Shown here one piece after another: positions 9,836-35,684 of a stretch of 64,000 bases of DNA. The translations under genes were made by a program, and so were the position numbers. Positions within the stretch are counted from its first letter, which is position 1, and every line of letters begins with the position of its first letter. This DNA comes from Yersinia intermedia (GTDB lineage: Bacteria; Pseudomonadota; Gammaproteobacteria; Enterobacterales; Enterobacteriaceae): positions 1,116,001 to 1,180,000 of the forward strand of contig NZ_LR134116.1 in the NCBI RefSeq assembly GCF_900635455.1. The letters are read 5' to 3'. The notes below the pieces were generated by a model, which was given only the letters and a program-made list of their open reading frames with translations, made no database searches and was not told the DNA's origin.

Positions 9836-9848
9836 TGGTGGGCTGGGG
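9836..9848. other. Candidate attachment-site remnant (degenerate ssrA 3' end)
   Basis: TGGTGGGCTGGGG matches the plus-strand image of the ssrA 3' end (TGGTGGAGCTGGGG at 35304) with one base missing. Its distance and orientation to the integrase copy the ssrA-proximal arrangement, so it is the best candidate for the junction between two tandem elements. Confidence 0.4.
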
Positions 9849-10372
9849 TCTCTGTAATTACACGTATAATAAATTGATTTTTATAATTATTTTGTTTTTA
9901 TATTTAATTGAGGGTTCAATGAAGGGACCAAAGAAACAACATGAGCAAAGTTGTGTTGTTTTTCAGCGTTAAAATCATCGATAGCACTGATGCCGAGGAG
10001 TTGAACTCACGACAAGCATCAAAATCTATTAAGGTCAGAGATAGCATATTTAACGCTCAGTGGTAAATCTTACACCTACCCGAACATTTTTTTAGCCTGA
10101 AGCAAGCTGAATAACAGATGATAGTTCAGAATTTAAACTTAATGGAATTAACTGCATGATAAATAACAAAATATTAAATAACTTCAAATAGAGTAAAAAA
10201 ATAGCACTTTTTGCAAAAATGTTTCAAAGCCCACGGCAACTGGCTTTCGTTACTCCCATCTCTAATCTGCCTAAAAATCCCTCACATCTTGATCAATTCG
10301 TGCTTTTTGAGAGTTGATCGTCATAAGCGATCTGAAGATACTACCTCCATCAAAACAACAATGGAGAAATGT

Positions 10373-10576
10373 ATGACAGAAAGAAAAAGATTTATCCGTT
10401 TACCTGAAGTGCTGAAAAGAACGGGTCTTTGCAAAGCTTGGATCTATAAACTTATTAGTCAAGATCGTTTCCCTGAACCTATAAAGCTTGGTGAGCGTGC
10501 AATAGCATTTGTCGAGAGTGAAATAGATGAATGGATTGATCAGATGATTTATTTATCCCGAAATAAATCGGCCTGA
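10373..10576 (+). CDS. alpA: AlpA-family phage/element transcriptional regulator
   Basis: A 67-residue MerR-like helix-turn-helix protein (RLPEVLKRTGLCKAWIYKLI, then FPEPIKLGERAIAFVESEIDEWI). AlpA activates the integrase and promotes excision of CP4-57 in E. coli. The ATG at 10373 has GGAG eight bases before it; the in-frame ATG at 10361 is less well placed. It lies near the left end of element 2, far from that element's integrase. The 500 bases before it hold no convincing gene. Confidence 0.8.
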   Translation: MTERKRFIRLPEVLKRTGLCKAWIYKLISQDRFPEPIKLGERAIAFVESEIDEWIDQMIYLSRNKSA

Positions 10577-15799: not shown

Positions 15800-15811
15800 A
15801 CATAAACTCCT

Positions 15812-17418: not shown

Positions 17419-18807
17419 TTATGGTCGAAAATTTTGGTTATCCATTTTTATACTTGAAGGTTTAATTTGATTATCTTGAGAAGGGAAATCCAAATTGTTA
17501 GCGGCGTTATATTGTTTTTCTTTAGGATGGCTTGGAAAACTCCTGATCTTATCAGGGGTAGGTCGATAGTCATTGCTGTTAAACCTGACACGTTTTTCAT
17601 GCTCAGAGCGTGAAACATAGATCCCCTGAACCTCATCAAAGACATAGTTTTCAGCAATACGTTTATCATGTTCAGCATCCACGGAAACAGGGGCAGGTTT
17701 CTTCTTAGCCCAGATAAATCTTCCCTTGAAGAATTCAGCTACCAGCAAGGTAAAGCGCTTAAAGATACCTTTCTTCTTAGGTTTAACCTGTTTCTTCTTA
17801 GATTTAACAGGAGCGCGTTTAATTGCTCCGGGTGTTGAAGAGGACAAGGTTTTCAGTTTAGTGCGTGTATGAGGCGTAGGAGCAACCAGAACAGGTTTTT
17901 GCTCTTCTGATGCTGACTGTGAACCTGCATCAGTTAATATAATTTCCACAGGCTCAGGCATATGTGAAACAGTGAAACTGTTTAGGTCTACTACTATCTG
18001 CAGATCTAAATCTTTAAACGTATTGTATGTTGCTGCAGCTTCTTGCTTCATCTCATCACGAACAGCCTGTTCAGCAGCACGTTGTTGTTGAGCTGTTTGA
18101 CTGTTCCATTTAGCACGAGGTATACGTTGCATAGCTGGACGACTGGTTAATGCTGCTTTAGCAATCCATAATGCTTTTTCTTCAACGTCAAATGTGATAG
18201 TGGCATTCTCAAGAGCTTCATCATGCTGGATCTCAATAGAACGGTGGTCAATACGTGCATCACTGCCAGCGGCAGCCAGATAGCTATTAGTAAATGTTGC
18301 CCATGATTCACGCCACTTGATCACGTTTTTCTTGTCATTCCAGCTTCTGTCTTTTTTACCAAAGCCTTCAGCAGTGATCGGTTTTAATGTCAGCATCACA
18401 TGTGCATGGGGGTTTTGGCTATCAAGATCATGAAAAGCGATATCAGCAATCATGCCTTTATCGACAAAGTTCTTCTGACAGTAATCTAAAACCAGTTTTA
18501 TCTTATCTTCATTGTTAATTTCAGTGGGAATAGCGACATCAAAATAGCGAGCTGTTTGACCATTGCTCTGACGCTCATCCTCTTCGACTTTATTCCATAA
18601 GGCTGTTGAGCTTTCGATAATATGAGAAGGAGCAGAAGCAGGGGCTAATATCTGATGATGGAATAAATCAGAACGGTGGCTAAAATCGTAGGTATTGCCA
18701 GTGCGATCATCTGTGATTCTGCAACGTGTATGGTAGGCAGCTTTCCTACAGGAAGACATACCCTCCGAGCGTTTCACAATTTTAAACTCCAGATGAAATA
18801 TTGCCAT
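17419..18807 (-). CDS. mobA: MobA/MobL-family relaxase (MOBQ)
   Basis: Nicks the transfer origin and pilots single-stranded DNA to a recipient. The N-terminal relaxase domain has candidate catalytic Tyr25 in RKAAYHTR and the HUH motif FHDLDSQNPHAHVML (H126, H134, H136). The C-terminal ~250 residues are basic and low-complexity (KSKKKQVKPKKKG near 345), lacking the primase seen fused in RSF1010 MobA. A candidate oriT lies 145-180 bp upstream. No coupling protein or type IV secretion genes are in the window, so mobilization would use a helper. Confidence 0.85.
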   Translation of the reverse strand: MAIFHLEFKIVKRSEGMSSCRKAAYHTRCRITDDRTGNTYDFSHRSDLFHHQILAPASAPSHIIESSTALWNKVEEDERQSNGQTARYFDVAIPTEINNEDKIKLVLDYCQKNFVDKGMIADIAFHDLDSQNPHAHVMLTLKPITAEGFGKKDRSWNDKKNVIKWRESWATFTNSYLAAAGSDARIDHRSIEIQHDEALENATITFDVEEKALWIAKAALTSRPAMQRIPRAKWNSQTAQQQRAAEQAVRDEMKQEAAATYNTFKDLDLQIVVDLNSFTVSHMPEPVEIILTDAGSQSASEEQKPVLVAPTPHTRTKLKTLSSSTPGAIKRAPVKSKKKQVKPKKKGIFKRFTLLVAEFFKGRFIWAKKKPAPVSVDAEHDKRIAENYVFDEVQGIYVSRSEHEKRVRFNSNDYRPTPDKIRSFPSHPKEKQYNAANNLDFPSQDNQIKPSSIKMDNQNFRP

Positions 18808-19350: not shown

Positions 19351-19427
19351 TTTTGAGTTAGTGATTGCACTCACTTGTGTTGCACAATTTTACTTTGAGC
19401 TTACTAGTATCTTATTTTTAAAACCAA

Positions 19428-19515: not shown

Positions 19516-19616
19516 TTTAATTTGAAATGAACAGCATTCAACTTTCTGCCTATGGTTTGACCTTTCCCTTTTTTAATTGTATTTCATGTTTTTAACAAAT
19601 TAAAGGGAAAGTAATT

Positions 19617-19927: not shown

Positions 19928-20097
19928 TATACTCATAAAAGCGATGTGGGATAAATATTTTTTGATCCTACAGATTTTTATGGGAGATTAAATTTATCCA
20001 GAGTAAGCGATTATGATAATCATTTATTTAAATAGTTAAATATATTTGACAATCGATGTTTAATATTATATTTAATAAGTGTTCCTTGCGAATATTC

Positions 20098-20240
20098 ACT
20101 TCAACGAAGTGTCTGATTGCCCCATATATGGGGAGTGGTTTACAGTCCAATGGGCTGATTGAGTTGCCCCAAGTATGGGGATATGTACTCTACCCAACGG
20201 GTAGTTCCCTTCAAGGGAAAAGAAAAAGCCGAAAGGCTCT
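20098..20240. repeat. Array of seven consecutive short hairpins
   Basis: Seven perfect or near-perfect stems follow each other: ACTTC/GAAGT, CCCC/GGGG (20120-20133), CAGTCC/GGGCTG, CCCC/GGGG (20167-20180), CTACCC/GGGTAG, TTCCCTT/AAGGGAA and AGCC/GGCT with a U-rich end. The last could terminate transcription of the traD-like gene. A degenerate version lies at 29120-29235. Confidence 0.6.
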
Positions 20241-20270
20241 TTTCTTATTGTAGTATTTATATTTTATGAT

Positions 20271-21320: not shown

Positions 21321-21340
21321 AAAAGGTCCTTGTAATTATA

Positions 21341-22102: not shown

Positions 22103-22189
22103 TGTTGAAAATCCTATTCTATTGATTAACTTTATGTAGATACTTCTGTCAGTATCTCATCCCTCTAAGAAGAATCAACCATTCTTGGT

Positions 22190-22444
22190 TGCAATCGCTA
22201 TATTTTTTTAGCAAATTAAAACGACCTGACCATACTATTGCTGTTAGCATCAAGGAAATCAGCCCACCACTGGAGCATCAAGCGGCGCTTTGTTGGTATA
22301 TGCTGCACGGACGCTGTTGCTTTCCTTGTGGCTCATCTGAAGCTCAACAGCATCTTCTGACCATAAACCTGACTCAATTAAGGCAATACAAGCCTTAGAG
22401 CGGAAACCATGATCACAAACTTCTCTTTTGGTGTCATAGCCCAT
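22190..22444 (-). pseudogene. CP4/P4-type integrase, C-terminal remnant 1
   Basis: Codes CDHGFRSKACIALIESGLW, then SEDAVELQMSHKESNSVRAAY, the catalytic end of a P4-type integrase. A frameshift and small deletion follow, after which MLQWWADFLDAN resumes. Everything upstream of the HGFR motif is missing. Confidence 0.75.
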
Positions 22445-22589
22445 TAACTAAACGCGTTGTTGATGGTGTTTTCACTCATCATTAACGGCTCTCAGAGCAC
22501 AATGCATTGATTTTGTTGTTACAGATTTGGACATTTATTGCTCATACAATATAATGATGAGTCATACATCAATGCAACACGCTTAGGCC

Positions 22590-22690
22590 ATATTTGCCAG
22601 CTGATAAGCAAACGCATGTTCAATATCTCCATGCGGGTAGTGGCCGCTTCGCCAGCCCAATTACGAAAGTTGTTCTTTTAGCGGGGCAGG
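22590..22690 (-). pseudogene. Second-type integrase, C-terminal remnant 2
   Basis: Codes NFRNWAGEA and, after a frameshift, YPHGDIEHAFAYQLANMA, the region around the tyrosine of a different integrase lineage. A related remnant in the same orientation lies at 25060-25240. The 300 bases from 22690 to the next gene show nothing else. Confidence 0.65.
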
Positions 22691-22992
22691 GAGCACAAAG
22701 TTATTGTTCTTAAAGCGTGGTAAATCCTTTAACAAGACAACAGCAGTATCAGACAGGGAAACTTTATCTCTTGTAAGGCACCACTGTGTCCTAGAAGACA
22801 TTCTTTGAGCTGTTGTTGTAACGATTTTTTGCCTTCTTAGCGATATCTTAGGTTAGAATTGGTATATGTTGATAGTAGGCGTTAAGTATTCTTGAGAAAT
22901 ATGGAGTTAGCTGTTAACTAAATGTTTTAATGTGTGATTATTATTTGCCAAGGCAATATTAGTATTTTAGTTTTTATAAAGTAGGTGTTTAA

Positions 22993-24174
22993 ATGAAAAT
23001 ACAAAAAATTGATATAAAAGATATTGGTGGTATAAAAAGAGCTATTATAGACTTTGATGAATACATGAATATTATTTGTGGTCCAAATGGAATAGGGAAA
23101 ACTACAATTTTAGACTCTGTGGCACATAGCTTTATTTCTACAAACAGCAATGTCCTCAAAAGACATGCCCAATCTACTAATGGTCAGATAAATATTGTTT
23201 TAAATGATTGCGATAGCATCAAAGAAAGCAATATTTCTTTTGAGAAATTTGATCCTGAGGATCACTCTTATATTAATGGATTGGGTCAAGCAGGAAGGAA
23301 AGTAATTTATTTGAATATCTCTAGGATGTTCAAGTATGTATCTTTATCTAATATTTCTAAAGATGAGGAAAGACAAGAACATAGCATATATTCACTTTTG
23401 ACAAATGGGATTTCGGTTGCGGATATGAAAAATTGGTTCGCAAAACGCTGTCTTTTCGTTAATACTCCAGATGCTTTGAGTGATAATAACAAAATTAATT
23501 TGGAGTTGGCAAAAAAATGTTTTTCATTGCTCAATGTTGAATATAGTTTTTCTCGTGTGGATGCGAAAAAATTCGATGTCTTCGTATGTACTCCAAATGG
23601 AGAAATTTGGTACGAATATCTATCCTCAGGATTTAAATCATGTCTGAGTATTTTATTCGGCATTATCAAAGAGATTGAGCTGAGAATGTCAGATGATGAT
23701 TGTTTAGCGCAAGATTTTGATGGCATTGTGTTAATCGATGAATTAGAAATGCATCTTCATCCTGAATGGCAATCCAAAATTGTTTCTGTTTTGCGAAATA
23801 CATTCCCTGCAACACAATTCATAGTTACTACTCATAGTCCTCATGTTATACAAAATGCAGAGCCTAATCAAATAATTGCATTAGGGACCGATAGTAATGG
23901 ATTTACTTATGTCAGAGAACTTCCAAGTAATGAATTTGGTTATACTGGATGGACATTAGACGAGGTTCTTAAAGATGTAATGGGAATGGAAGATACCAGA
24001 AGCCAGAAATTAAAAAATATGCTTGCTGAATTTGACAAAGCCATTGATGAAGAAAATAAAATTGAAGCAGAAAGTATTTATAGAGAATTAGATATGGCAC
24101 TTCATCCATCAAATGTACTTAGAAAAATGCTTAGCATTGACCTTTCCTCAATAAGCGAGGAGGTTGAAAAGTAA
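22993..24174 (+). CDS. AAA/ABC-type ATPase, PtuA-like (Septu-type system 2)
   Basis: 393-residue ATPase: Walker A GPNGIGKT (30-37), signature LSSGF (210-214), Walker B IVLIDE (245-250) followed by LEMHLHPEWQ, and the switch histidine in TTHSPHVI (H281). This is the usual PtuA size. Its stop is followed with no gap by the HNH gene, so the two are made together. It shares only the general ATPase motifs with the first system's ATPase. Confidence 0.78.
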   Translation: MKIQKIDIKDIGGIKRAIIDFDEYMNIICGPNGIGKTTILDSVAHSFISTNSNVLKRHAQSTNGQINIVLNDCDSIKESNISFEKFDPEDHSYINGLGQAGRKVIYLNISRMFKYVSLSNISKDEERQEHSIYSLLTNGISVADMKNWFAKRCLFVNTPDALSDNNKINLELAKKCFSLLNVEYSFSRVDAKKFDVFVCTPNGEIWYEYLSSGFKSCLSILFGIIKEIELRMSDDDCLAQDFDGIVLIDELEMHLHPEWQSKIVSVLRNTFPATQFIVTTHSPHVIQNAEPNQIIALGTDSNGFTYVRELPSNEFGYTGWTLDEVLKDVMGMEDTRSQKLKNMLAEFDKAIDEENKIEAESIYRELDMALHPSNVLRKMLSIDLSSISEEVEK

Positions 24175-24921
24175 ATGATTAAGCTGGAAAGAAACTTTAC
24201 ACCTCTATTCTTTTCTCCGCAGAATGTTAGTCGTTTAACTGAAAGATTTAAGAATAATGGTTCACATGTATGGCATCATGATGATGTAAAAAATTCGTTG
24301 ATGGAAATAAGTGATAAAAAATGTGCGTATTGTGAGGTAAAACTTGGTGAAAAAAGTACTTACCATGAGGTAGAGCATTTTAAGGATAAGAATGATTACC
24401 CCGATGATGTAATAGAGTGGAATAATCTATTACCCTCATGTCGTCATTGTAATAGTTCGAAAGGGACTCATGATGTTGTCCATGAACCAATAATTAATCC
24501 TTTCAATGATATCCCAGCAGAATATTTTTATATTAAAAATTTTAGAGTAAAAGGAAAAAATGGAATTGGCACTTTGACTATAGATGTTTTAAATCTTAAT
24601 GATAGAGAACATTTAGTAAAACCACGGTGTGAAACAGGAACTATAATTTCGGAAAAACTAGAGGATTCTGTGGTTTTATTTGAGGAGTATATTTCAAATC
24701 CAACAAATCAGAAGAAGAGAAAATTAATCGGTACTGTTAGAGGTATACTGAATGAATGTCAAAAAAGTGCAATATTTTCGGCAGTATCGGCGACAATATT
24801 ACATACAAGTGAAGACTATCTAATTATACGAGATATTATGAAGGCTAATAATTTATGGGATGAAGATATGGAGCAACTTCATCTCATGTCAAGAAGTATA
24901 AAATTACCGACTAAAGCCTAA
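24175..24921 (+). CDS. HNH endonuclease, PtuB-like (Septu-type system 2)
   Basis: 248-residue HNH protein: C50-x2-C53 in KKCAYCEVKL, E67-H68 in HEVEHFKDK, C89-x2-C92 in PSCRHCNSSKGTH. This is the TIGR02646/PtuB pattern also seen in retron Ec78 and Septu effectors. No reverse transcriptase or retron RNA is evident nearby, so a stand-alone Septu system is the better reading. The pair is flanked on both sides by integrase 3'-end scars. Confidence 0.78.
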   Translation: MIKLERNFTPLFFSPQNVSRLTERFKNNGSHVWHHDDVKNSLMEISDKKCAYCEVKLGEKSTYHEVEHFKDKNDYPDDVIEWNNLLPSCRHCNSSKGTHDVVHEPIINPFNDIPAEYFYIKNFRVKGKNGIGTLTIDVLNLNDREHLVKPRCETGTIISEKLEDSVVLFEEYISNPTNQKKRKLIGTVRGILNECQKSAIFSAVSATILHTSEDYLIIRDIMKANNLWDEDMEQLHLMSRSIKLPTKA

Positions 24922-24929
24922 TATAGCTG

Positions 24930-24955
24930 ATGCCGTTTACTCACATATACGGCAT
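24930..24955 (+). terminator. Terminator after Septu-type system 2
   Basis: ATGCCGT (24930) pairs with ACGGCAT (24949) a few bases after the HNH stop, followed by a short T-rich stretch. Confidence 0.5.
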
Positions 24956-25059
24956 TAGTTTCTACATGTTATTTACATACTTCGATTATCCGTTTCTGAC
25001 TAAGAAAGTATCAACCTGTCACGACAATCAACACCACTCAGTAAGGCACGTAAGCAGCG

Positions 25060-25240
25060 CGAATATTGGCTAAAAATACCCCGTCCAATCATCTATCAGC
25101 TCCACACGTTTAGGTCATAACGTCCCACGTAGATATGCCGCTGCCACCTTATCTGCCAGTTGGTACGCCAACGCATGTTCAATGACTTCATGTTGATGGT
25201 CCGTTGTTTCGCCAGCCCAAAAGCAAAATGTCAGACAGCA
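25060..25240 (-). pseudogene. Second-type integrase, C-terminal remnant 3
   Basis: Codes WAGETTDHQHEVIEHALAYQ, then LADKVAAAYLRGTL, stop, PKRVELIDDW: the end of a tyrosine recombinase carrying an in-frame stop. It is similar to remnant 2 and lies on the far side of the Septu-type pair. Confidence 0.7.
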
Positions 25241-25439
25241 GAACCCAGTGTTTTATTCAAGCTTTTCTGGGGCGTGTAAAAACCGCTTACTTAATTAATA
25301 CAAAATATATTAAGGTCTGTAAAACGAAGTAAGAATAAAACGCCGAATTCAGCGGCGCTATCTTGATTAAAGGTCGAAGTATTCCGCGATATTACATAGT
25401 TGGGTTTTAGGTAGTGTCCGAAGGACAATGGTAGTGTTA

Positions 25440-25610
25440 ATTTATCCCACCGTAAGGCGGTAAAACACTAAAATAGAAAAGTAAGCATGTTGTTAGATGC
25501 TTTTCCCTGTTGCACAATTCACAGGTTAGGATGGGAAATAAGAATTTAAATTTAACATGTGAAATGAAAAACTCTAACGAAAAAATTAAGTAACGAGGTG
25601 AGTATTAAAT
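25440..25610 (+). repeat. Leader repeat, copy 2
   Basis: GTTGCACAATTCACAGGTTA (25509-25528) and the closing block ending TATTAAAT at 25610 repeat copy 1 at 19190-19350. The hairpins CCGAAGG and CCGTAAGG just upstream are also shared. About 220 bases of AT-rich DNA without a gene follow. Confidence 0.55.
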
Positions 25611-25850
25611 AAAATTATTAGTGGTTGTTATTTTCTATGGTTTTTCTATTTATCTTTTAATCATTTGTTACGTGTTTGTTTTTTTGTGGCATTACAATGT
25701 GGCAATAAATTTATGCACTATATAACAGTAGCATAACTCGGTTTTTTACAAGGATTTAAGAATATCAAGTTGAAAAGAGATGGTATGGTTGGATAAAATT
25801 CAGAGACTTATGTTGTGCATGGATATCTATTATGACTATAGCCAAAGATA

Positions 25851-26501
25851 GTGCAAATGATGAAATTATTCACGGAAATGATCTTAGGAAAGGTTGCGGT
25901 ATTCACGATTTCAAAAATAGTAAAGATCATTCTTCTAATGATAAAAGAAAAGAAAAGAAAAGAAAACTCTCCTCCTGCGCTAGTGATTTCCTTGTTGAAA
26001 CTTAATGTTCCTGAAAGAAATAAAAGGGATGGGCATTATAGTAAACATGTTAAATTACCAAATGAAGATAAATATACTAATGAACATCCTGTGTCAACCT
26101 CAAGTATCAAACCCATAGTTGACTATTACATCAATAACACCACTCACGATGAGTATATTTCAATGCCGCCTTATGAAAAAAGAACTTATGAAAAAAGAAC
26201 TTATGCAAAAACATTTCAATTAATTATATATAAGAATGGAATTCGCTATATAAAGCCTGCAATTTATTTTGGAAGTATTCAATCGAATACTATTGTTGAT
26301 CGAAATTCTGATAAATATGTTTTGACTTTTTTGTCTAGAGATAAGCAGATAAATAAACCCTTCAGATTAGAAATTGATGTCTCTAAATGGAATGATAGTC
26401 AAAAGGATGTTTTTTATAATGAACATCTGGCGTCATTAATTTTCCGGTTGATTAATCTAAGTGCATTTGTGTCTCCCAAAAGCACTTGGATTATTTACTA
26501 G
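25851..26501 (+). CDS. Hypothetical protein; N-terminus uncertain because of AAAAG repeats
   Basis: The C-terminal ~170 residues (from NVPERNKRDGHYSKHV to STWIIY) look like a genuine strand-rich domain of unknown family. The start is doubtful. A second frame from ATG 25832 (MTIAKDSANDEIIHGND) has the T-ending codons typical of neighbours and runs into four AAAAG repeats (about 25943-25962), after which it stops. Adding one AAAAG unit would fuse it to the main frame. Thus it may be a phase-variable gene in the off state, a simple frameshift mutant, or real as listed. YEKRTYEKRTY also shows an internal 15-base duplication. Confidence 0.45.
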   Translation: MQMMKLFTEMILGKVAVFTISKIVKIILLMIKEKKRKENSPPALVISLLKLNVPERNKRDGHYSKHVKLPNEDKYTNEHPVSTSSIKPIVDYYINNTTHDEYISMPPYEKRTYEKRTYAKTFQLIIYKNGIRYIKPAIYFGSIQSNTIVDRNSDKYVLTFLSRDKQINKPFRLEIDVSKWNDSQKDVFYNEHLASLIFRLINLSAFVSPKSTWIIY

Positions 26502-26595
26502 TTAATTAAATGTACACTTAAAAATATCGCTCCTTGTATTGATAATTATCCAAAATATGGTAAAGGATAATGAACAACAAATACAAGGAGGTTTA

Positions 26596-26853
26596 ATGTA
26601 TAAAAATAATGATGAAGCTATCGATTGGGAAGCCAAGCGACTTCTTGATGATGGGATTTATACCGATACAGAACAAGCCTATTTAGAAGCAGAGAAAATA
26701 GTAATTAATATACGGGAACAAGCAAAGCAGCGCCAGATAAAGCAACAATTCAAATTGAAGATTAAATCAATCAAGAAAAAAATTGGTAATGGTTATGATT
26801 ATGTGGATGTCCCTTATGCCAACAAGAAAAAACATTGGGGAGATAAATCATGA
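26596..26853 (+). CDS. Small mobilization-associated protein, 85 residues
   Basis: Highly charged helical protein (DWEAKRLLDDGIYTDTEQAY, then EKIVINIREQAKQRQIKQQF). The ATG at 26596 follows a perfect GGAGG. Its last codons overlap the next gene's start (ATGA), so the two are translationally coupled. No family recognised; pairing with a TraD-like protein suggests an auxiliary relaxosome role. Confidence 0.55.
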   Translation: MYKNNDEAIDWEAKRLLDDGIYTDTEQAYLEAEKIVINIREQAKQRQIKQQFKLKIKSIKKKIGNGYDYVDVPYANKKKHWGDKS

Positions 26854-27125
26854 CAACAAAAACCATCAAACAGCAAATTGCTTCAGCACAGGAACGCCTA
26901 TACTTCTTGGAAGCTAAAAAGAAACAACAAACAAAAAAAGAGAATACTCGTCAGAAAATTATTTTCGGTGCAGAGGTTGCCAAAGTCTTAGGATGTGATA
27001 TTGGTTATGTAGATAAAGAGTTAGTCTTTGGGGTTCTGCTCGATATCCAAAATCTTCATGAGAGTGATATCGAAAAATACAGACATAATGGTAAAACCTA
27101 CATTAATACCTTTATCATTAAATAA
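26850..27125 (+). CDS. TraD-like mobilization protein (intact copy)
   Basis: 91 residues: coiled IKQQIASAQERLYFLEAKKK, then TRQKIIFGAEVAKVLGC, the core shared with small TraD/MobC-like proteins of MOBQ plasmids. It matches the frameshifted copy at 19617-19927 and the dead copy at 28690-28945. Likely helps the relaxase open oriT; inferred from family and from mobA in the same element. Confidence 0.6.
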   Translation: MTTKTIKQQIASAQERLYFLEAKKKQQTKKENTRQKIIFGAEVAKVLGCDIGYVDKELVFGVLLDIQNLHESDIEKYRHNGKTYINTFIIK

Positions 27126-27313
27126 TTATTTCACGTCCGAACGGTGAACCGGTTTAAAACTTGTTTTTAAGCCGGTGAGCTGTTGAGCAAGCCCAGTAAG
27201 GCGCGGTAGCCTATTTCTTTATTCCGCTATGTTAAAAATATTCTTCGTTCATCTTGACCTCTTTTTTATTTTTGTTAATTAATGATTACGTGAAAATAAA
27301 AAAGGACGCGAAA

Positions 27314-28630
27314 ATGATTAAACAATATAAAAAAGGATTTTCCTTATTAGAGTTGGTATTGGTTTTAGGGGTTGGCACTGCAATGGCTTTTATTAAATTT
27401 CAAGATATGAAAAATGAGCAAGATGTTGCTATAGCTAATACGGTAGGAGCGCAGATAAAGCAAGTCGGTGAAGCGGTTAATCGCTATATCAGTATTCGAT
27501 ATGACAAGCTTTCAACCCTGACAAGCAGTACCAGTCAATCCAATGATCCGGGGCCAAGAATTTGTTCATCCAATGGCTGTGAAATCACGTATCAGACATT
27601 AATTACTGAAGGACTATTGCCTGTCAGTTATACCGGGATAAATGCCAATAAATCTTTATATAAGGTTTTATTGAAACGTTCAGGTATAGCTCCTAACTAT
27701 GTGATCAATGGCCTTGTGATGACAACGGCAATATGGAATGAAGGAGGGAAAGTTCGCTATGACCTCCTTGGTAAAGCGATGCAATCGGCAGGAATAGACA
27801 GCGGAATGACCCGCTCACCCACTGTAGCTTCTGGTTATGGTGGTCAATGGAATGAAAAAGCATCTGACTACAGCAATATCACTTCAGAAGGTTTATTGGC
27901 CTATCGTGTAGGCTATGACTCATCAATGTATTCGGTTTATCTGCGCCGTGATGGCACATTGCCAATGACGGGAGATCTGAATATGGGCGGCAAAAATATT
28001 AATAACGCCAAAGATATTACTGCTGCAGGCACTGTGAGGGCGGAGATATTAAAATCGACAGGATCAACCAATGTAGGCGATGCCTTAACCGTTATAGGGA
28101 ATTCGACTTTGACTGGCGCTGTAGAAGCAAAGTCTACCTTATCGGTCAGTGGTGCTTCAACCTATGGAGGTGTTGTTCAGGTTAATAATGTGATTAACGC
28201 AACCGGTAATATCAATACGACTTCGGATATTAACAGTAAGCGTGTTTATTCTGGTTATATTCAGTCGACAGGGCGTATCACATCAGATGAGTATGTTCAG
28301 ATAAATGGGATTGCTGTATCTGGTGCAGCCTGTTCACCTAATGGGCTTATTGGGCGATCAAGTGTAGGGGATATGCTGTCTTGTCAATCCGGTGTTTGGG
28401 GTTCAGGTGGAAAGGTCGAAGTTATTTACGGGAGTAATCCTGTATGTTCAGCTAATAAAATCCCTGTAGCACGCTACTGGACGCAACCGGGAGGTTCTAA
28501 CTATGGCAATTATTGCACCTTACAAACTGGCTGGGCTGGAGTCACGACACCTTCCTGCGAATCGTGTGCAAACTGGGAAAAATGCCATATGGTTTATTCT
28601 GCATCATGGTCGGCAACGGCGTGTAGTTAG
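27314..28630 (+). CDS. pilV: PilV-like type IVb minor pilin / shufflon adhesin
   Basis: 438 residues with a prepilin leader and hydrophobic helix (KKGFSLLELVLVLGVG), a long constant part with strand repeats (VGDALTVIGNSTLTGAVEAK), and a Cys-rich C-terminal tip. In R64-type plasmids PilV sits at the thin-pilus tip and selects recipients. The junction LSCQSGVWG is coded by a shufflon-type site (28381-28399). The ATG at 27314 follows AAGGACG. No other pil gene and no Rci recombinase are present, so it would depend on another element's pilus or be a relic. Confidence 0.78.
   Translation: MIKQYKKGFSLLELVLVLGVGTAMAFIKFQDMKNEQDVAIANTVGAQIKQVGEAVNRYISIRYDKLSTLTSSTSQSNDPGPRICSSNGCEITYQTLITEGLLPVSYTGINANKSLYKVLLKRSGIAPNYVINGLVMTTAIWNEGGKVRYDLLGKAMQSAGIDSGMTRSPTVASGYGGQWNEKASDYSNITSEGLLAYRVGYDSSMYSVYLRRDGTLPMTGDLNMGGKNINNAKDITAAGTVRAEILKSTGSTNVGDALTVIGNSTLTGAVEAKSTLSVSGASTYGGVVQVNNVINATGNINTTSDINSKRVYSGYIQSTGRITSDEYVQINGIAVSGAACSPNGLIGRSSVGDMLSCQSGVWGSGGKVEVIYGSNPVCSANKIPVARYWTQPGGSNYGNYCTLQTGWAGVTTPSCESCANWEKCHMVYSASWSATACS
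28381..28399 (+). repeat. Single shufflon sfx-like recombination site
   Basis: TTGTCAATCCGGTGTTTGG matches the R64 sfx consensus (as I recall it, GTGCCAATCCGGTnnnTGG) at all but two fixed positions and falls at the constant/variable junction of PilV. No second or inverted copy was found downstream. Confidence 0.6.
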
Positions 28631-28689
28631 TAAATATAGCTTTTGTTCTGCTAAAGAGAGCCAAGCTATTGTTAATTTATAGGAAGTAA

Positions 28690-28945
28690 TGGATGAAGAT
28701 GATAAAGCATATATCGATGGGCAGAAAAAAATTTAAGTAGCATCAGTACAGATGTGCCTAAATAGTTTTAAAATTAAAAGAGATATCATTATTCAAGCTA
28801 ATAGAAATGCGTTAGAAGATCATTTTAAGAGTTGAGGGTGTAAAGTGTTAAACTGCGACATCCATAACGTTGATAAATTACTTATGTTAGGTTGATTCTC
28901 AGAAGTACTTGATATTGTCATTAATTCTGATAGTTATAATTAAAA
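28690..28945 (+). pseudogene. TraD-like gene, dead third copy
   Basis: Begins MDEDDKAYIDGQKKI like the MNVDDKN start of copy 1, then a stop, then VASVQMCLNSFKIK, and further on VLNCDIHNVDKLLMLG matching VLGCDIGYVDKELVFG of the intact copy. Several stops and a deletion make it non-functional. The repeat block that follows also copies the region after copy 1. Confidence 0.6.
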
Positions 28946-28980
28946 ACAATGTGATGTTGAGAGTTTTATTTTAACATTTA

Positions 28981-29030
28981 TTTTATTTTATTTTATTTTA
29001 TTTTATTTTATTTTATTTTATTTTATTTTA
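28981..29030. repeat. TTTTA pentanucleotide repeat, ten units
   Basis: Ten perfect TTTTA units in a row between the dead traD copy and the degenerate hairpin block. It lies outside any gene; length variation between isolates is expected. Confidence 0.9.
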
Positions 29031-29119
29031 TTTTTTCAAATATCATAATGTTATTCAAATGATATTTTTAATAATATATTTAACAAGAGAAAAAATAATA
29101 CTATATTTTATAATGGTTG

Positions 29120-29235
29120 TTTAAAGTGTTAATTTTAATAAAGTGTCTGAGTGCTCCATATACGGAGGATCTATTACCCCCTTTGGATAGTTCTCTTTAC
29201 GAGATTGAAAAGAGCCGAATGGTCCTTTTTGACTC
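29120..29235. repeat. Degenerate hairpin block, related to 20098-20240
   Basis: AAGTGTCTGAGTGCTCCATATACGG-type sequence, a TTCTC/GAGA stem and an AGAGCC/GGTCC stem follow the same order as the seven-hairpin array, but several stems are broken. The next 200 bases are AT-rich; TTGTGTG and CACACAA form an inverted pair near 29352-29381 before the methylase gene and may be its operator. Confidence 0.45.
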
Positions 29236-29442
29236 TGTTTAAATGATTCTAAAATTTCCTTTCACTTTGAGTTTTGGCGTTTTTTGTGAATTTTGCGCAA
29301 TTTTTATTTTTTATTTTTATAGTAAAATCAATAATATATGATTTTTTTTCTTTTGTGTGTAACTTTTGTTGTGCACACAAGGTGTTTTGATTATCATGTA
29401 TAAAAGATCAGGCAAAGATATGCTAAGTATGAGAGTGAGAAA

Positions 29443-30540
29443 ATGACAATCATTACACAAGAAATTAAAAGTGAAAAAATACATTTGCGTATTACACCAT
29501 CTCAGAAAAAAAATTGGAAAATTTTAGCAGAGCAACAAGGCATAAGTTTGGCTGCATGGATTGAAAATAAAATATCTATGGCGCTGGCATCGAATAGCGA
29601 TTTTTTTCAAAAAGAAAAGTATAAGCTAATTTCTCTTTTCTCAGGCTGTGGTGGTATGGATTTGGGTTTTTGTGGTAATTTTTCTTTTTTGAATAAAGAA
29701 TATAAAAAAACAAAATTTGAAATTATTTGGGCTAATGAGTTTAATCCTAATGCAGTAAAAACATATAAGAAAAACTTTTCACATAATATAGTTGAAGGCG
29801 ATATATGGGAACTTATCGATTCAGTCCCTACAGAATGTGATGTATTAATTGGAGGTTTCCCTTGCCAAGATATATCCATTAATGGGAAAAGAGCTGGAGT
29901 TGATGGAAAACGCAGTGGTTTATATCTTGCTATGGTAGAAGCTGTTAAGCGCTCGCGTCCAAAAATTTTCATCGCAGAAAATGTTAAAGGACTGCTTATG
30001 AAATACAACGAAGAGTCTTTGGCTCGTGTTATAAAGGATTTCAGTGAGTTGGGTTATAATGTTAGTTATAAACTTTATAACTCGGCAAACTTTGGAGTTC
30101 CACAAACAAGAGAGCGTGTTTTTATAGTTGGAACACTACATGGAAATCCTCTATTTAAAGAACCTGTGGATATACTACACAAAAATGAATGGTTGACTTG
30201 TAATGACGCGATTCATGATTTGGAAAAGCTTGATGAGGATCGAACCTTTAATCATATTTGGAGTAAGGCTAAAAAAAGTCCAGACCAAGGAAGCCGACGC
30301 CTAACGAAAGATAAGCCATCTCAAACTATAAGAGCTGAGTGTCATGGCAATATTCAGTTTCATTACAAATTAGATCGTCGTATTTCGATGCGAGAGGCTG
30401 CGCGTCTTCAAACATTCCCTGATAATTTTGTTTTTGAATCTAACTTAAGGGAAACTGAAAGGCAGGTTGGAAATGCAGTTCCTCCGGCTTTAGCTTGGCA
30501 TTTAGCACAAGCGGTTGAAGAATATTTAGATAAATTATAA
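29443..30540 (+). CDS. DNA cytosine-5 methyltransferase (type II R-M)
   Basis: 365 residues with the ordered C5-methylase motifs: I LFSGCGGMDLGF (65-76), IV GGFPCQDIS with catalytic C141, VI AENVKGLL (179-186), VIII QTRERVF, IX RLQTFPD, X QVGNAVPP. A ~50-residue N-terminal extension (KIHLRITPSQKKNWKILAEQ) resembles a ribbon-helix-helix DNA-binding segment, which could let the enzyme repress its own operon. It is convergent with a restriction endonuclease gene 61 bp away. Target sequence cannot be inferred. Confidence 0.88.
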   Translation: MTIITQEIKSEKIHLRITPSQKKNWKILAEQQGISLAAWIENKISMALASNSDFFQKEKYKLISLFSGCGGMDLGFCGNFSFLNKEYKKTKFEIIWANEFNPNAVKTYKKNFSHNIVEGDIWELIDSVPTECDVLIGGFPCQDISINGKRAGVDGKRSGLYLAMVEAVKRSRPKIFIAENVKGLLMKYNEESLARVIKDFSELGYNVSYKLYNSANFGVPQTRERVFIVGTLHGNPLFKEPVDILHKNEWLTCNDAIHDLEKLDEDRTFNHIWSKAKKSPDQGSRRLTKDKPSQTIRAECHGNIQFHYKLDRRISMREAARLQTFPDNFVFESNLRETERQVGNAVPPALAWHLAQAVEEYLDKL

Positions 30541-30601
30541 TTTATATTGAGGATGCCATGATTAATAAACGATACTATCGTGGTATCCTTTTAAACGCTC
30601 T

Positions 30602-31609
30602 CTATTTATTAACTGCGGTAAATAGGGTTTCCGATGGAGTCCAACCTACAGCATAAGAATCAGCCAACTTTAACCAATACTTGATTCTTTCCTCTCTAGG
30701 GGTATTTATGCCCCAATACTCTTCAAATAAGGCATCTTCTAACTCAAAAAATGCCAGAAGCATTTCTGCTTCTATATCATTTAGTGCTCTTTCTATATAG
30801 TTTCCACCTCTTACTGATGACGACCGCATGGCGACACTTCCAGCAGAAAATAAATCCCTAGCTTGATTACATAATATTCCATAATATGTAAGAAGAAACA
30901 TAGTCACATCATCATATTTTCCTGATGCCCGACTAGATTTAACTATTTGTGGGCACAGTACTGCTGACTCTGCTCGATACTTTCTCTTTTCTTGCTGTGG
31001 AAGCTTTGTATATAACCTGACCTCTAAGGGTAATGTCCTTTCATTAGGTTGATCATCAATCCACCAAAGCCTTTCACCGGGTTTCATTCTATTTTTAGCA
31101 TATTTCCTGATGAATGGCATTTTTTCTTCAGGGCTTAAAATTCGGAAATCATTATAATTTATATTTAGTTTATCAAATAATGGTTCTTTAGCATTAATTT
31201 CCACTTCAAACCTTGGGACATGAGACGTTCTTACATGCATGATACATTCATCATAGTGTCCCCATTTAGCCTCAGGTGTGCCACCTATTTTTCCGAATAA
31301 TAGGTATACATAATCTACCCCTTGTTTACGACTTCCTTCAAAGATACTATTTGCTATAGATCGCCATGTATTATTATCTGAATACTTAACCTCTACACCA
31401 AAGTTTCCAATAATTATATCTGGAAACTCTTGTGCGGGCGGACTCATGTCCACTGATAACCCCATGTCCGTTAATATTTCACCTAAAACCTCTCTAACTC
31501 GCTGTTCAAATTTCTTCGAGTTATGATACTCGCTTGATGAGTTCAGGTCTTGAGAGAGTTTTTCAGTTGTCTTAGTTAATAAGGTTTCAAAAAGCTTGCG
31601 TTCTATCAT
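30602..31609 (-). CDS. Type II restriction endonuclease, PD-(D/E)XK
   Basis: 335 residues. The catalytic core is visible as FPDIIIGNFGVEVKYS: D64, E73 and K75, with a preceding helical segment KKFEQRVREVLGEIL. Its position tail-to-tail with a C5 methyltransferase makes it the cognate nuclease. The rest of the protein, probably giving sequence recognition, matches no family I can name. Confidence 0.75.
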   Translation of the reverse strand: MIERKLFETLLTKTTEKLSQDLNSSSEYHNSKKFEQRVREVLGEILTDMGLSVDMSPPAQEFPDIIIGNFGVEVKYSDNNTWRSIANSIFEGSRKQGVDYVYLLFGKIGGTPEAKWGHYDECIMHVRTSHVPRFEVEINAKEPLFDKLNINYNDFRILSPEEKMPFIRKYAKNRMKPGERLWWIDDQPNERTLPLEVRLYTKLPQQEKRKYRAESAVLCPQIVKSSRASGKYDDVTMFLLTYYGILCNQARDLFSAGSVAMRSSSVRGGNYIERALNDIEAEMLLAFFELEDALFEEYWGINTPREERIKYWLKLADSYAVGWTPSETLFTAVNK

Positions 31610-31640
31610 TTTTCATCTAAATCTTCTCTATCCGCGTATG

Positions 31641-31805
31641 TCATAGGTTACAACGATATGTACCTTCGTCACAAGACATAATAAACACTTTATAATCATA
31701 AAGATATATAATATGCTGCAATCTAGCATTACGCGTTGACTGCCAGTATTCACCATCTAGACTCTCAGAAAATATGAGATGTATCTCCAAAACTCTGTAG
31801 TTCAC
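31641..31805 (-). CDS. Short possible reading frame upstream of the endonuclease gene
   Basis: A GTG at 31805 opens a 54-residue frame (NYRVLEIHLIFSESLDGEYW, then QSTRNARLQHIIYLYDYKVF), and the frame is open further upstream without an ATG. Composition looks coding. It could be a remnant of a longer gene or a small control protein; it ends 32 bp before the endonuclease start. Confidence 0.3.
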   Translation of the reverse strand: MNYRVLEIHLIFSESLDGEYWQSTRNARLQHIIYLYDYKVFIMSCDEGTYRCNL

Positions 31806-31900
31806 AACATCATTGTCTATGCTTATGGTTGTTTCATGCGGAATGCCTCTGATAGAATGGCAGGTATTCCATTAATGGCACTGTGTTTTCAGTAAGGTAT

Positions 31901-32539
31901 ATGATGACAAGCACAAACTCTAACAGTGCATCATTCGATAATATAAAGTTTAAATACTATCTTTATTTTTTATCTTTATGGGTTTTATTTTTATCTGTAT
32001 CAATAATGTCATTTGATTGGGTCTTTTTTGAAAGGCTAATGAAATTCCTATCATTACAATACACGCCAGACTATATAGTCAATAATGCTTATAAGCTAAA
32101 AATTAGGAATTTTGTTTTTATTTTCTGTATTTCAATGGTTTTATTTGGTATTACCTCTGTGTTCTATTTATTCTCATCTTTATCCAGAGGTTGGGGAAGC
32201 ACTAGAAAGGTTATAAATGTAAAAAACCAAACTCACGAGCATTTGGAGTTTTTGACTACATATGTCATGCCTCTTGTTTTTACAGACGTAAACAGCAAAA
32301 GAACAGTGATAAATTTATTGCTAATGATTTGTTTTATTGGGGTGATTTATGTAAGAACTAACAGGTTTTATGCCAATCCTTCACTTGCCATTCTAGGTTT
32401 CAGGTTATATAAGTGCTCTATTAAGAGTGATTCTTCTTGTAAGGAATACACTATAATATGCAGAGGGAAACTATCAAATGGCAGTCAAGTGAAAATTAAG
32501 AAAATTGATGACGATACTTTAATCGCTAAACTTATCTAA
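31901..32539 (+). CDS. kwaA: Kiwa defence membrane protein KwaA-like
   Basis: 212-residue membrane protein with strong hydrophobic helices at about 20-38, 70-92 and 135-151 and possibly 115-128. Size, helix count and its direct coupling to a DUF4868-like gene match KwaA of the Kiwa anti-phage system, where the membrane protein senses phage at the envelope. The ATG at 31901 has TAAGG upstream; a GTG at 31883 would add six residues. The call depends mainly on the partner. Confidence 0.6.
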   Translation: MMTSTNSNSASFDNIKFKYYLYFLSLWVLFLSVSIMSFDWVFFERLMKFLSLQYTPDYIVNNAYKLKIRNFVFIFCISMVLFGITSVFYLFSSLSRGWGSTRKVINVKNQTHEHLEFLTTYVMPLVFTDVNSKRTVINLLLMICFIGVIYVRTNRFYANPSLAILGFRLYKCSIKSDSSCKEYTIICRGKLSNGSQVKIKKIDDDTLIAKLI

Positions 32540-32560
32540 TTTTATTAAGGATTCTATTAA

Positions 32561-33568
32561 ATGAAAGCAGAGTTGGAGGAGTTTCTTCAAAATGACGGTC
32601 TTTCTGGTGAGATGTTCTTTATTATAAAAAATGACAATAACTATATTTATCGACGAGTTGTTTTACATGATGAAAATACAGAGCCGCTTATAACAGAAAG
32701 CTTTAAATTATCTATCGCCAATGAAATTCTCAAGCGTATTACAGTTGACGATAATGGTGGTGAGATAATAGATAATATTACAGATATGAACTATGAAAAC
32801 AAAGGTGTCTATTATTTTGATATTTCAGATGATGATAGGGGTGAAGTAATTAAAACAATAGAGGAAATATCATCTCTAACTTTAGCTGACAATCCTGTGG
32901 ATTTCAAATTTAATGATGCTAGTCTTGATGATATCGTAGGCCTTGTTTATCATATTAGCGATGGTGATAAAAATATTTATTTATACCAGCATAGATATCC
33001 GAACTTTTTACATAAAAAATCAAGATTATCTTTTTTAGGGAAAGATGATGTTTTAGTGCCTATACCTTACGATATGATAAATATATCAAAAATCATTGAT
33101 TTCTTCATTTTTGATGGGGTTAGTTATGCTATCAATATTAAATTATTGGAGGAAAGATATGGTCTTACTCAAGTTATAGATAACATGGTGAATGAGGTAA
33201 CACCTAAAATTATTGAGCTGGAGATCGTTAATAAATCTGTTCTGACTGAACCAGAACAGCTTTTTGATGATATGAAAGAGGATCGTGGCTTCATGAGAAA
33301 ATTAGCCAGAGTTCTTAAAAATGGGATATTAGAATTAAATGTCGATATTAATATAGTTAATGAGATAAAAGATAGTTTTCCAACAATAGGCAAGAATATT
33401 GAGGTGGTAAATGATAAAAATGGAATTCAATATATAAAATTGACAAGTAAATCGAGAAAAAAAGCCTTTATTAGGTTGCTGAATGATGAAGCGGTTCGTT
33501 CTGTTCTAACACGAAAACCATCAATAGCGCAAAATCATAAACCTGAAAAAGATGTAGCTCCGGCTTGA
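32561..33568 (+). CDS. kwaB: Kiwa defence effector KwaB-like (DUF4868)
   Basis: 335-residue soluble acidic protein. MFFIIKNDNNYIYRRVVL near the start, the central FLHKKSRLSFLG segment and the FIFDGVSYAINIKLLEE segment are in the style of DUF4868 (KwaB). It begins 21 bp after kwaA. In Kiwa, KwaB binds DNA and blocks phage late transcription/replication once KwaA is triggered; assignment here is by architecture and memory of the family, not a search. Confidence 0.65.
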   Translation: MKAELEEFLQNDGLSGEMFFIIKNDNNYIYRRVVLHDENTEPLITESFKLSIANEILKRITVDDNGGEIIDNITDMNYENKGVYYFDISDDDRGEVIKTIEEISSLTLADNPVDFKFNDASLDDIVGLVYHISDGDKNIYLYQHRYPNFLHKKSRLSFLGKDDVLVPIPYDMINISKIIDFFIFDGVSYAINIKLLEERYGLTQVIDNMVNEVTPKIIELEIVNKSVLTEPEQLFDDMKEDRGFMRKLARVLKNGILELNVDINIVNEIKDSFPTIGKNIEVVNDKNGIQYIKLTSKSRKKAFIRLLNDEAVRSVLTRKPSIAQNHKPEKDVAPA

Positions 33569-33908: not shown

Positions 33909-35138
33909 TTACGCAGCAATAGCCTTATGTTTCTGCACTTGAATATAATCCCCCCACCATTGCATAAGATCTGCTCTTTCGACGAGATACTCTGCACGAT
34001 TGTAAGCAGCTATAATCTCAGTGCTTTTGGTATGAGCTAAAGCTGACTCAAGTACTTCAGTCCTAAATTTACCGCTTTCTTCTGCAGCAGTCCTTGCTAT
34101 CGAGCGCATCCCATGTGCAACCAATTCACCACCTAAACCCATACGGATTAACGCTGCATTGGCTGTTTGCTCATGCATATGGGTCAGTGGGGTTTTTATG
34201 CTGGGAAATACCCACTCTCGATGGCTGCTGATAGGCTGCATATTTTCGAGTATACGAAGAGCTTCTTTGCTGAGCGGCACCTTATGAAGACGTTTCATCT
34301 TCATAAATTCGGGAGGGATGTTCCAGACTTTGTTCTCTGTATCGATGTCAGACCAACGCGCACGAACCGCCTCTCCGGGGCGAACCCAAGTAAGCAACTG
34401 CCATTCAATCAGCATACGGGTTTCCAGACGGACTGAGGCATTAGCCAGTGCAGCCATAAATCTTGGTAGTTCGCTGGGGGGAAGGGCGGGCATATTTTGC
34501 TTTTTAGGTTTACTAAAACGCTGACCGAGGTTATCAGCAGGATTAAACTCAATAAGTTCTTCTGTCGCTGCCCAGCGGAAGATTTCATTCAAGCGGGAAA
34601 TGATTCGGCGCAGGGTTTCCAATACACCGCGTTGTTCAATTGGGTCAAGATGCTGCTTCAATAACTTAGGCCGGATCTCTTTGATAGGAACATTGCCTAA
34701 TCCGGGGAAGATATTTCGTTCAAGACTACGCCAGATGTCTACTGCATGGTCTTTGGATATACCAGATGTCTTTACCTTCTCATCTAACCACTTTCGAGCA
34801 ACGGCTTGGAGCGTGTGCTCAGTAGCATCCTTTAATGCATTAGCTTTATCGTTGTTATGGACTTGTGGATCGATGCCATTGGCAAGTAAAGATAGGTATT
34901 CATCCCGCAAAGCTCTTGCTCTTGCTAACGTGAGGTGGGGGTATGTTCCGAGGCTTACCTTTGTTCGCTTTTTAGTTACTGGCACTGCATACCTGAAATA
35001 CCAATTTTTCTTACCACCCCTTGAGAGGGGAGCGATTCTTAGCATTAAGCCATCACCGTCAAACAAGTTGATTTCTTTGTCTGCAGGTTTAGTGCTTTTG
35101 ATTTCAGTATCCGTGAGTTTTTTTGCGAGTTTTGCCAT
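33909..35138 (-). CDS. intA: Tyrosine recombinase, CP4-57/P4-type integrase (element 2)
   Basis: Integrase adjoining ssrA, the site used by CP4-57 IntA. Start at 35138 (MAKLAKKLTDTEIKSTK) chosen for a GAGG site and family length (409 residues); an ATG at 35192 would add 18 residues rich in GPK repeats. Catalytic Arg in WVRPGEA, HGMRS box, Tyr in YNRAEYLVER, closing MQWWGDYI. It is colinear with the integrase at 8446-9642. The alternative longer start has its own repeated GGGTCC bases, which may be regulatory. Confidence 0.9.
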   Translation of the reverse strand: MAKLAKKLTDTEIKSTKPADKEINLFDGDGLMLRIAPLSRGGKKNWYFRYAVPVTKKRTKVSLGTYPHLTLARARALRDEYLSLLANGIDPQVHNNDKANALKDATEHTLQAVARKWLDEKVKTSGISKDHAVDIWRSLERNIFPGLGNVPIKEIRPKLLKQHLDPIEQRGVLETLRRIISRLNEIFRWAATEELIEFNPADNLGQRFSKPKKQNMPALPPSELPRFMAALANASVRLETRMLIEWQLLTWVRPGEAVRARWSDIDTENKVWNIPPEFMKMKRLHKVPLSKEALRILENMQPISSHREWVFPSIKTPLTHMHEQTANAALIRMGLGGELVAHGMRSIARTAAEESGKFRTEVLESALAHTKSTEIIAAYNRAEYLVERADLMQWWGDYIQVQKHKAIAA

Positions 35139-35235
35139 TTTGGGACCCTCAAGTTTTGGACCCTTTGTGTTGGGTCCCAAGGAGGGTGCCATAAGTAGTG
35201 GTTTCTAGCAATTCTCAGTAGACTGCTATAGACGT

Positions 35236-35303: not shown

Positions 35304-35684
35304 TGGTGGAGCTGGGGGGATTTGAACCCCCGTCCGAAATTACTACGCCGTCGGCACTACATGCTTAGTCCAGTCATTACATTCGCCGGTTAGCTGCGGA
35401 CGGACACGCCACTAACAAACTATCCTGATTGGGTTTAACGCTTTCACCACAGGCAAGGTGTCCACGCGATCTCTTTTAGGTTTGACCTCTCTTGATCCCC
35501 GTCCTAAGAGCGGAGGCTAGGGAGAGAGGGAATCTTCAGTTTCTTAGGCTGATTAAGCTGCTAAAGCAGCAGATTCGTATTGCGAGTCGTTTGCAATTAT
35601 TTTTTTTGCGGTTTTTTACGAGGCCTCCGCACCTCGGCATGCACCTTGGGTTTCGCGAATCCCGTCGAATCCAGAATCAGCCCC
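35304..35684 (-). ncRNA. ssrA: tmRNA (transfer-messenger RNA)
   Basis: Rescues stalled ribosomes. The 5' end GGGGCTGATTCTGGATTCGAC is at 35684 and the 3' acceptor ends AGCTCCACCA at 35304, so CCA is encoded. The tag frame (about 35535-35577) reads ANDSQYESAALAA then TAA, the Yersinia tag, longer than E. coli's ANDENYALAA. The T-arm reads GGGGGTTCAAATCCCCCC. A -10-like TATACT lies just upstream at 35698-35703. The 3' end is the island's insertion point and has been restored intact. Confidence 0.95.

What the first reader, a model, noticed from the sequence alone, without database searches (positions are those of the whole stretch)
27314..28630. Orphan PilV with a single frozen shufflon site
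PilV normally works with a full pil operon and the Rci recombinase that swaps its tip. Here it is alone in a mobilizable island, with one sfx-like site and one Cys-rich tip. It might be inserted into a helper plasmid's pilus to change recipient choice, which would be a neat way for a mobilizable element to steer its helper.
Basis: partly seen in the sequence, partly recalled or inferred. Interest (0 to 1): 0.7.

Follow-up and report, generated by a model that had tools for sequence, protein, structure and literature searches.

The report
Hitchhiker island with borrowed pilus tip
A Yersinia DNA island that lacks its own transfer machinery carries a single pilus-tip gene whose recognition end matches the swappable tips of pilus-bearing mobile elements, so it may help choose which cells the island enters.

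Summary
Window 27314-28630 encodes an intact 438-aa PilV with one sfx-like site and a six-cysteine tip, in a 25.5-kb MOBQ island at ssrA of a Yersinia, without pil assembly genes or Rci.

It is neither unique nor a truncated operon. Of 60 PilV loci from 54 genomes, 25 are island-type: none has a pil assembly gene and 21 have MobQ and/or TraD. The other 35 all have assembly genes and none has MobQ/TraD. One 100/100 branch separates the two PilV groups. The backbone is related to the published EARL/ROD21-like islands, which usually carry PilS and PilV.

Not found in print: tips are exchanged at the sfx position. The window's constant region is 26% identical to a Yersinia plasmid PilV, its tip 86%. 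'Frozen' holds only in cis. PilV is under purifying selection, is often found without PilS, and here follows a covarying hairpin that may be oriT.

Best guess: PilV joins a pilus supplied in trans and biases partner choice, as SGI1 replaces helper subunits. This is untested; a host-assembled adhesin is the main rival.

The parts
27314..28630 (+). orphan pilV, 438 aa: prepilin-like N-helix, constant region (aa 1-356), C-Q-S-G-V-W junction, 76-aa tip
28381..28399 (+). single sfx-like site at the constant/tip junction
28400..28627 (+). Cys-rich tip, 86% identical to a Y. enterocolitica pil-operon plasmid tip
27127..27208 (+). 82-nt element with an 18-bp covarying hairpin between traD and pilV; candidate oriT or structured leader
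   Evidence: role inferred
26850..27125 (+). traD (PF06412), overlaps the upstream ORF by 4 bp
26596..26853 (+). small ORF before traD, found in 8 of 19 island loci compared
17419..18807 (-). MobQ family relaxase (MobA_MobL)
10325..10576 (+). small HTH protein, candidate excisionase/RDF (47% over 74 aa to a HTH protein in the same place of the E. coli Nissle island)
   Evidence: role inferred
33909..35192 (-). island integrase, 99% identical to that of the Y. aleksiciae island
9836..9848 (+). left end: imperfect copy of the ssrA 3' end (TGGTGGGCTGGGG)
   Evidence: attachment role inferred
35304..35684 (-). ssrA (tmRNA), integration target

Best explanation
PilV is an accessory mating-specificity subunit of a mobilizable, defence-rich MOBQ island. 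SHOWN by sequence: the gene is intact and under purifying selection, belongs to an island PilV lineage without pil assembly genes in every locus I examined, and its tip has been exchanged, at the sfx position, with the tip pool of pil-operon elements. INFERRED: when a conjugative element with a type IVb pilus shares the cell, island PilV is processed by a prepilin peptidase, joins a pilus whose machinery (and here also the major pilin) comes in trans, and adds or replaces a tip, so that mating pairs form preferentially with cells carrying its receptor (LPS, by analogy with R64), while the MobQ relaxase sends the island through the helper's secretion channel. It would work like the SGI1 TraN/H/G subunits, but at the pilus tip.
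For: Two separate PilV worlds: 0 of 25 island-type loci have pil assembly genes and 21 of 25 have MobQ and/or TraD; 35 of 35 operon-type loci have assembly genes and 0 of 35 MobQ/TraD; 26 island and 28 operon constant regions split on one branch, 100/100. MobQ and island PilV co-occur in 18 genomes of 392 (30 with MobQ, at least 21 with PilV). Purifying selection: dN/dS 0.06-0.26 in five Yersinia copies. Tip exchange at sfx; 8 of 16 island tip families have relatives in 38 pil-operon loci. PilS found in 10 genomes, each with island PilV, while 11 PilV genomes showed none with one PilS query. pilV lies next to traD and a conserved hairpin. PilV tips set recipient choice in R64 and TP114 (PMC10516633 passages; PMC9045228 abstract); SGI1 replaces helper subunits (PMC5389848 abstract).
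Against: No helper, expression or incorporation was shown. CFT073 pilVS act in adherence and mouse fitness (PMC3855560 passages); that this strain has no conjugative helper is recalled, not checked. ROD21 transfers although its pilV is annotated a pseudogene and deleting its relaxase changed nothing (PMC3198454, PMC3976249 passages). PilV is dispensable for the islands: 12 of 30 MobQ genomes had no classified island PilV, and 7 of those 12 that I read had no PilV or prepilin-like ORF near MobQ. Half of the tip families have no operon relative. Island PilV is only about 26% identical to operon PilVs in the constant region, so compatibility with a helper's pilin is uncertain. The window genome has chromosomal prepilin peptidases and T2SSE ATPases that could serve it instead.
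Confidence: 0.5

Rival explanations
1. Host-assembled adhesin: island PilV, with or without PilS, is processed and assembled by chromosomal type II secretion or type IV pilus machinery and serves attachment to host cells or surfaces, not mating.
For: Deleting c2394-95 (pilV, pilS) in CFT073 lowers adherence, pili seen by EM and mouse fitness (PMC3855560 passages). SEN1976 of ROD21 appears in a mouse transposon screen (PMC6968874 passages). The window genome has two prepilin peptidases and four T2SSE ATPases over cut-off.
Against: The tips are shared with conjugative-type pil operons; the gene sits with MobQ/TraD in 21 of 25 island loci, not with the variable cargo; plant-associated genera carry it too. 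The CFT073 authors themselves ask for immunostaining to confirm the pili.
Confidence: 0.27
2. Interference: island PilV poisons or occupies the helper's pilus tip, lowering helper transfer, redirecting pilus phages or easing surface exclusion rather than steering recipients.
For: SGI1 subunits enhance SGI1 transfer over the helper and disable entry exclusion (PMC5389848 abstract). An extra tip without a shufflon could compete with helper tips (inference).
Against: A conserved, swapped recognition tip suggests recognition rather than blocking; no direct evidence.
Confidence: 0.1
3. Relic: a leftover of a lost pil operon with no present function.
For: Some copies are broken: places in G750, G757, G563 and G459 hold stops, L010 is cut by an IS, and G452 has a truncated one.
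Against: Purifying selection, a separate lineage, no assembly-gene hits in 25 island loci.
Confidence: 0.05

Closest known systems
[quoted passage not shown] ROD21 and ICEKp258.2; also the E. coli serU island (Nissle, CFT073)
   Same: MobQ relaxase (58-60% identical to E. coli copies), TraD (48-50%), a lipoprotein (45-56%), a RepL-like protein (32%), an RDF-like HTH (47%), PilV and an integrase
   Different: Inserted at ssrA, not tRNA-Asn; integrase only 32-33% identical to the E. coli ones; no PilS found; an antiphage cargo
PilV with shufflon of R64 (IncI1) and TP114 (IncI2)
   Same: Shufflon_N domain, C..G.W junction encoded by an sfx-like site, exchangeable tip
   Different: No pil operon, no Rci, one tip; constant region 27% identical to R64
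SGI1 TraN/TraH/TraG
   Same: A mobilizable island that encodes its own versions of helper mating subunits (functional analogy only)
   Different: Pilus tip instead of mating pore; incorporation not shown; unrelated proteins

Membership tests
Shufflon_N / PilV | PF04917 over its cut-off | tested here: met
   49.8 bits, cut-off 27.5
Shufflon_N / PilV | prepilin N-terminus and helix | tested here: met
   G|FSLLE; Pfam N_methyl only 14.4 bits, below its cut-off of 21.2; helix 11-61 in the model
active shufflon | several sfx sites, inverted tips and an Rci recombinase in cis | tested here: not met
   one site in the island; the only recombinase seen is the island integrase
EARL genomic islands | MobA/MobL relaxase and TraD | tested here: met
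EARL genomic islands | pilus-related protein (PilV) | tested here: met
EARL genomic islands | type IV pilin (PilS) | tested here: not met
   no match in the genome with one query
EARL genomic islands | P4-like integrase of the family, RDF and direct repeats at tRNA-Asn | tested here: inconclusive
   integrase 32-33% identical to E. coli copies, HTH 47%, ends at ssrA instead
integrative mobilizable element | relaxase and integrase but no secretion channel of its own | tested here: met
   no VirB4 in the genome
SGI1-like remodelling of a helper | product works inside the helper's apparatus | not testable with these tools
   needs bench work

The most novel reading that the evidence does not exclude
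A whole family of hitchhiker islands keeps its own pilus-tip adhesin and re-arms it by capturing recognition tips from the shufflons of the conjugative elements it rides, perhaps through the helper's own Rci acting on the island's retained sfx site. The hitchhiker would retarget its helper's mating with the helper's own tip library.
Probability: 0.2. Interest if true: 0.85.

Novelty: new variant of a known kind. Interest (0 to 1): 0.6.

Why it matters
How islands that cannot transfer by themselves get from cell to cell, and whether they influence the partner, is open. If island PilV works in a helper's pilus, the hitchhiker rather than the helper sets part of the mating range. It would give a transfer role to the pilVS genes of E. 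coli islands, so far read as an adhesin and present in about 560 of 5426 complete E. coli genomes, and it offers an oriT candidate for part of this island family.

Tried and rejected
Truncated pil operon: rejected. Unique to this window: rejected. Independent invention on a small plasmid: the 5.8-kb K. aerogenes plasmid pMB5632_6 has an orphan PilV, but it falls on the island side of the tree on a long branch, so no independent origin is claimed; it is the only plasmid record in which one place covers at least 80% of that PilV. Fold search: no PDB match at E<=0.001; by sequence only two geopilin N-helix matches; the tip is modelled below pLDDT 50, so nothing is said about its fold. Candidate oriT element in plasmids: no match. 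That element was found in 25 of 48 locus records searched and not in the E. coli islands L003, L008, L009, nor in L040, L043, L108, L110, L111 and others; five of their traD-downstream gaps were folded without a clear counterpart. Single tips against 72,556 plasmids: window 2 records, Nissle only 2 records of its own island type, EC01 32, Pectobacterium 24, Dickeya none, Pluralibacter 2.

Limits of the counts. The 60 loci come from 54 genomes, picked by score from the tables plus Yersinia places; weaker rows were not fetched or classed, so 'island PilV in 21 of 392 genomes' is a minimum. 'Island' and 'operon' were assigned from PilV sequence, so the tree split is partly built in; gene context is the independent test. 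Five of 34 island PilVs had no complete tip and were left out; 9 of 154 proteins lacked the C..G.W motif and were dropped. One of the 8 tip families with an operon relative (Dickeya) rests on E = 2e-4. The MobQ/PilV/PilS table was typed by hand. Of 12 MobQ genomes without classed PilV I read 7 (G739, G537, G444, G755, G691, G738, G693; two cut by contig ends). In one search the queries labelled W were read from an alignment row by mistake; redone. The 'Rci' hits in L096, L003, L008 and L161 are read as integrase cross-hits.

Full report
OBSERVATION. The ORF at 27314-28630 codes for a 438-aa protein with the Shufflon_N domain (49.8 bits, cut-off 27.5) and a prepilin-like start. One sfx-like site (28381-28399, two mismatches) marks the junction to a 76-aa tip with six cysteines. 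No other PF04917 gene, no match to one E. coli island PilS and no VirB4 were found in the 4.76-Mb genome, which is held as one contig, so a plasmid may be missing. Two prepilin peptidases and four T2SSE ATPases over cut-off are present. The genome is a Yersinia: its genus group includes a genome with the 4,000,307-base contig that names Y. aleksiciae, and 6.5 kb across the integrase and the neighbouring core genes is 89% identical to that record.

THE ISLAND. The gene lies in a 25.5-kb element between an imperfect copy of the ssrA 3' end at 9836 and ssrA itself at 35304-35684. It carries an integrase, a MobQ relaxase, a small ORF and traD overlapping each other, then pilV 188 bases further on. 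Cargo looks antiphage: strong matches to PtuA/PtuB (Septu), PD-T7-5, a type II restriction-modification pair and KwaB, weaker ones to PDC-M62. G+C is 35%, against 47% in the parts of the window outside that I compared. A second integrase at 8446-9642 points to a second island in tandem.

NOT UNIQUE. Of 5426 complete E. coli genomes, 564 match the traD-pilin-pilV segment of one E. coli island, all on chromosomes. Nissle and EC01 chromosomes, and a record labelled plasmid (F17EC0245), show MobQ - TraD - PilS - PilV - integrase without pil assembly genes in the stretches read. Relatives came from Yersinia, Pectobacterium, Dickeya, Mangrovibacter, Pluralibacter, Cedecea and Klebsiella. Islands with this backbone are published as EARL islands: 52 of 56 share pilin, pilus-related protein, relaxase and TraD (PMC6035254, passages and first part of the Discussion). 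Part of the kind is therefore known.

TWO SEPARATE WORLDS OF PILV. A PilV profile hit 75 of 392 genomes of the family. I fetched 60 loci from 54 genomes. By PilV sequence 25 are island-type and 35 operon-type. By context, 0 of 25 island loci have PilL/M/N/O/P/Q/R/T/U and 21 of 25 have MobQ and/or TraD (not L096, L105, L113, L143); 35 of 35 operon loci have assembly genes and 0 of 35 have MobQ or TraD (the PilS hits in four island loci fit the island's own pilin). Constant regions of 26 island and 28 operon PilVs separate on one branch with support 100/100. In the 392 genomes a MobQ at least 50% identical is in 30, island PilV in at least 21, both in 18. The island PilS is in 10, each with island PilV, and 11 of the 21 PilV genomes showed none with that one query. 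Of eight MobQ loci fetched because PilV was missing or partial, seven have no PilV or prepilin-like ORF and one a truncated PilV: PilV is accessory.

TIP EXCHANGE AT SFX. Against the pil-operon plasmid of Y. enterocolitica Y128 the window's constant region is 26% identical and its tip 86%; against Fukatsuia 25% and 75%. At DNA level the window and Y128 share 45% of the 210 bases before the junction (one conserved block reaches 23 of 30) and 75% of the 246 after it, the first 14 being identical. A search with the tip alone among 5.8 billion proteins gives 12; this tip family has 16 members in eight constant-region clusters, of which only one is island-type, so the operon class is the likelier donor. 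The same Yersinia island constant region occurs with other tips (P0005, P0010, P0088). Elsewhere: Nissle and EC01 share 99% of the constant region but 24% of the tip, with the DNA break at the same place; two Pectobacterium islands 92% and 2%. In E. coli the swap is rare: 560 of 5426 genomes carry the Nissle-type tip, 2 the EC01 tip. Of 16 island tip families 8 have a relative in 38 pil-operon loci; the other 8 have none there, though one of these (Pluralibacter) matches two Salmonella plasmids at 35-36%. The exact sfx core survives in the window, L034/L138, L136 and the broken copy L112, is one base off in L033/L137 and L135, and elsewhere is mostly reduced to the C..G.W codons.

SELECTION. 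Among five Yersinia copies, none with PilS found at its locus, dN/dS of the constant region is 0.06-0.26 per pair; the tip shows 0-2 nonsynonymous against 2-7 synonymous changes. The gene is kept.

CANDIDATE oriT. An 82-nt element was found in 25 of 48 locus records searched (21 distinct places, as four are fetched twice; five of the 48 are operon-type, without a hit). In the nine cases where I compared coordinates (window, L033-L039, L044) it follows traD closely. Its 18-bp hairpin is paired in 99% of cells over 23 sequences, with changes on both sides in 7 pairs and 0 of 500 shuffles reaching this (related sequences can inflate that control). A hairpin with a GC-rich tail beside relaxase genes suggests oriT; the resemblance to MOBQ nick regions is recalled, not tested, and an RNA role is possible (fold z-score -2.97). 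In the window pilV is the next gene behind it.

MECHANISM. Shown: intact, selected, island-lineage PilV with an exchanged tip, beside transfer genes. Inferred: it enters a type IVb pilus supplied in trans and biases mating. PilV tips set recipient specificity in R64 and TP114 (PMC10516633, passages; PMC9045228, abstract), and SGI1 TraN/H/G replace helper subunits (PMC5389848, abstract). Against: CFT073 pilVS act in adherence and mouse fitness (PMC3855560, passages); ROD21 transfers although its pilV is annotated a pseudogene, its relaxase deletion had no effect, and its transfer was tied to pSLT (PMC3198454, PMC3976249, PMC6035254, passages and Discussion part). I put helper-pilus use at 0.5 and a host-assembled adhesin at 0.27.

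NOVELTY. Eight searches of an open-access library and the passages read gave no proposal that island PilV changes a helper's partner choice, no report of tip exchange at sfx in these islands and no oriT for them. Subscription papers were not searched, and supplementary files were not open to me.

Noticed in passing
window 27127-27208 (also L033:5952-6033, L034:9817-9898): Covarying 18-bp hairpin element between traD and pilV, found in 25 of 48 locus records; candidate oriT of these islands.
   Followed up: partly
window 14867-33568: Dense antiphage cargo: PtuA/PtuB, PDC-M62-like pair, PD-T7-5, type II R-M pair, KwaB.
   Followed up: partly
window 8446-9642: Second integrase next to the left end; suggests a second island in tandem at ssrA. 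Its far end was not found.
   Followed up: no
L002 (NZ_CP103670.1): A 5.8-kb K. aerogenes plasmid carries an orphan PilV next to an annotated MobC; island-side PilV on a long branch. The 456-aa ORF behind mobC looks like a relaxase but was not tested.
   Followed up: partly
L008 (E. coli Nissle serU island): PMC5521745 (abstract and passages) says the serU island has no mobilization genes, whereas this copy is annotated with a MobQ relaxase and TraD.
   Followed up: partly
L003 (CP088875.1) and L004 (NZ_OL790696.1): Records filed as E. coli plasmids look chromosomal: L003 is flanked by zinT-msrPQ-hprRS, L004 is a 4.8-Mb record.
   Followed up: no
L156-L162: MobQ/TraD islands without PilV or a prepilin-like ORF; one (L156) has an integrase 92% identical to the window's.
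   Followed up: partly
L016, L027, L029, L031, L032: A 1.7-Mb genome of the order has five PilV-like matches.
   Followed up: no
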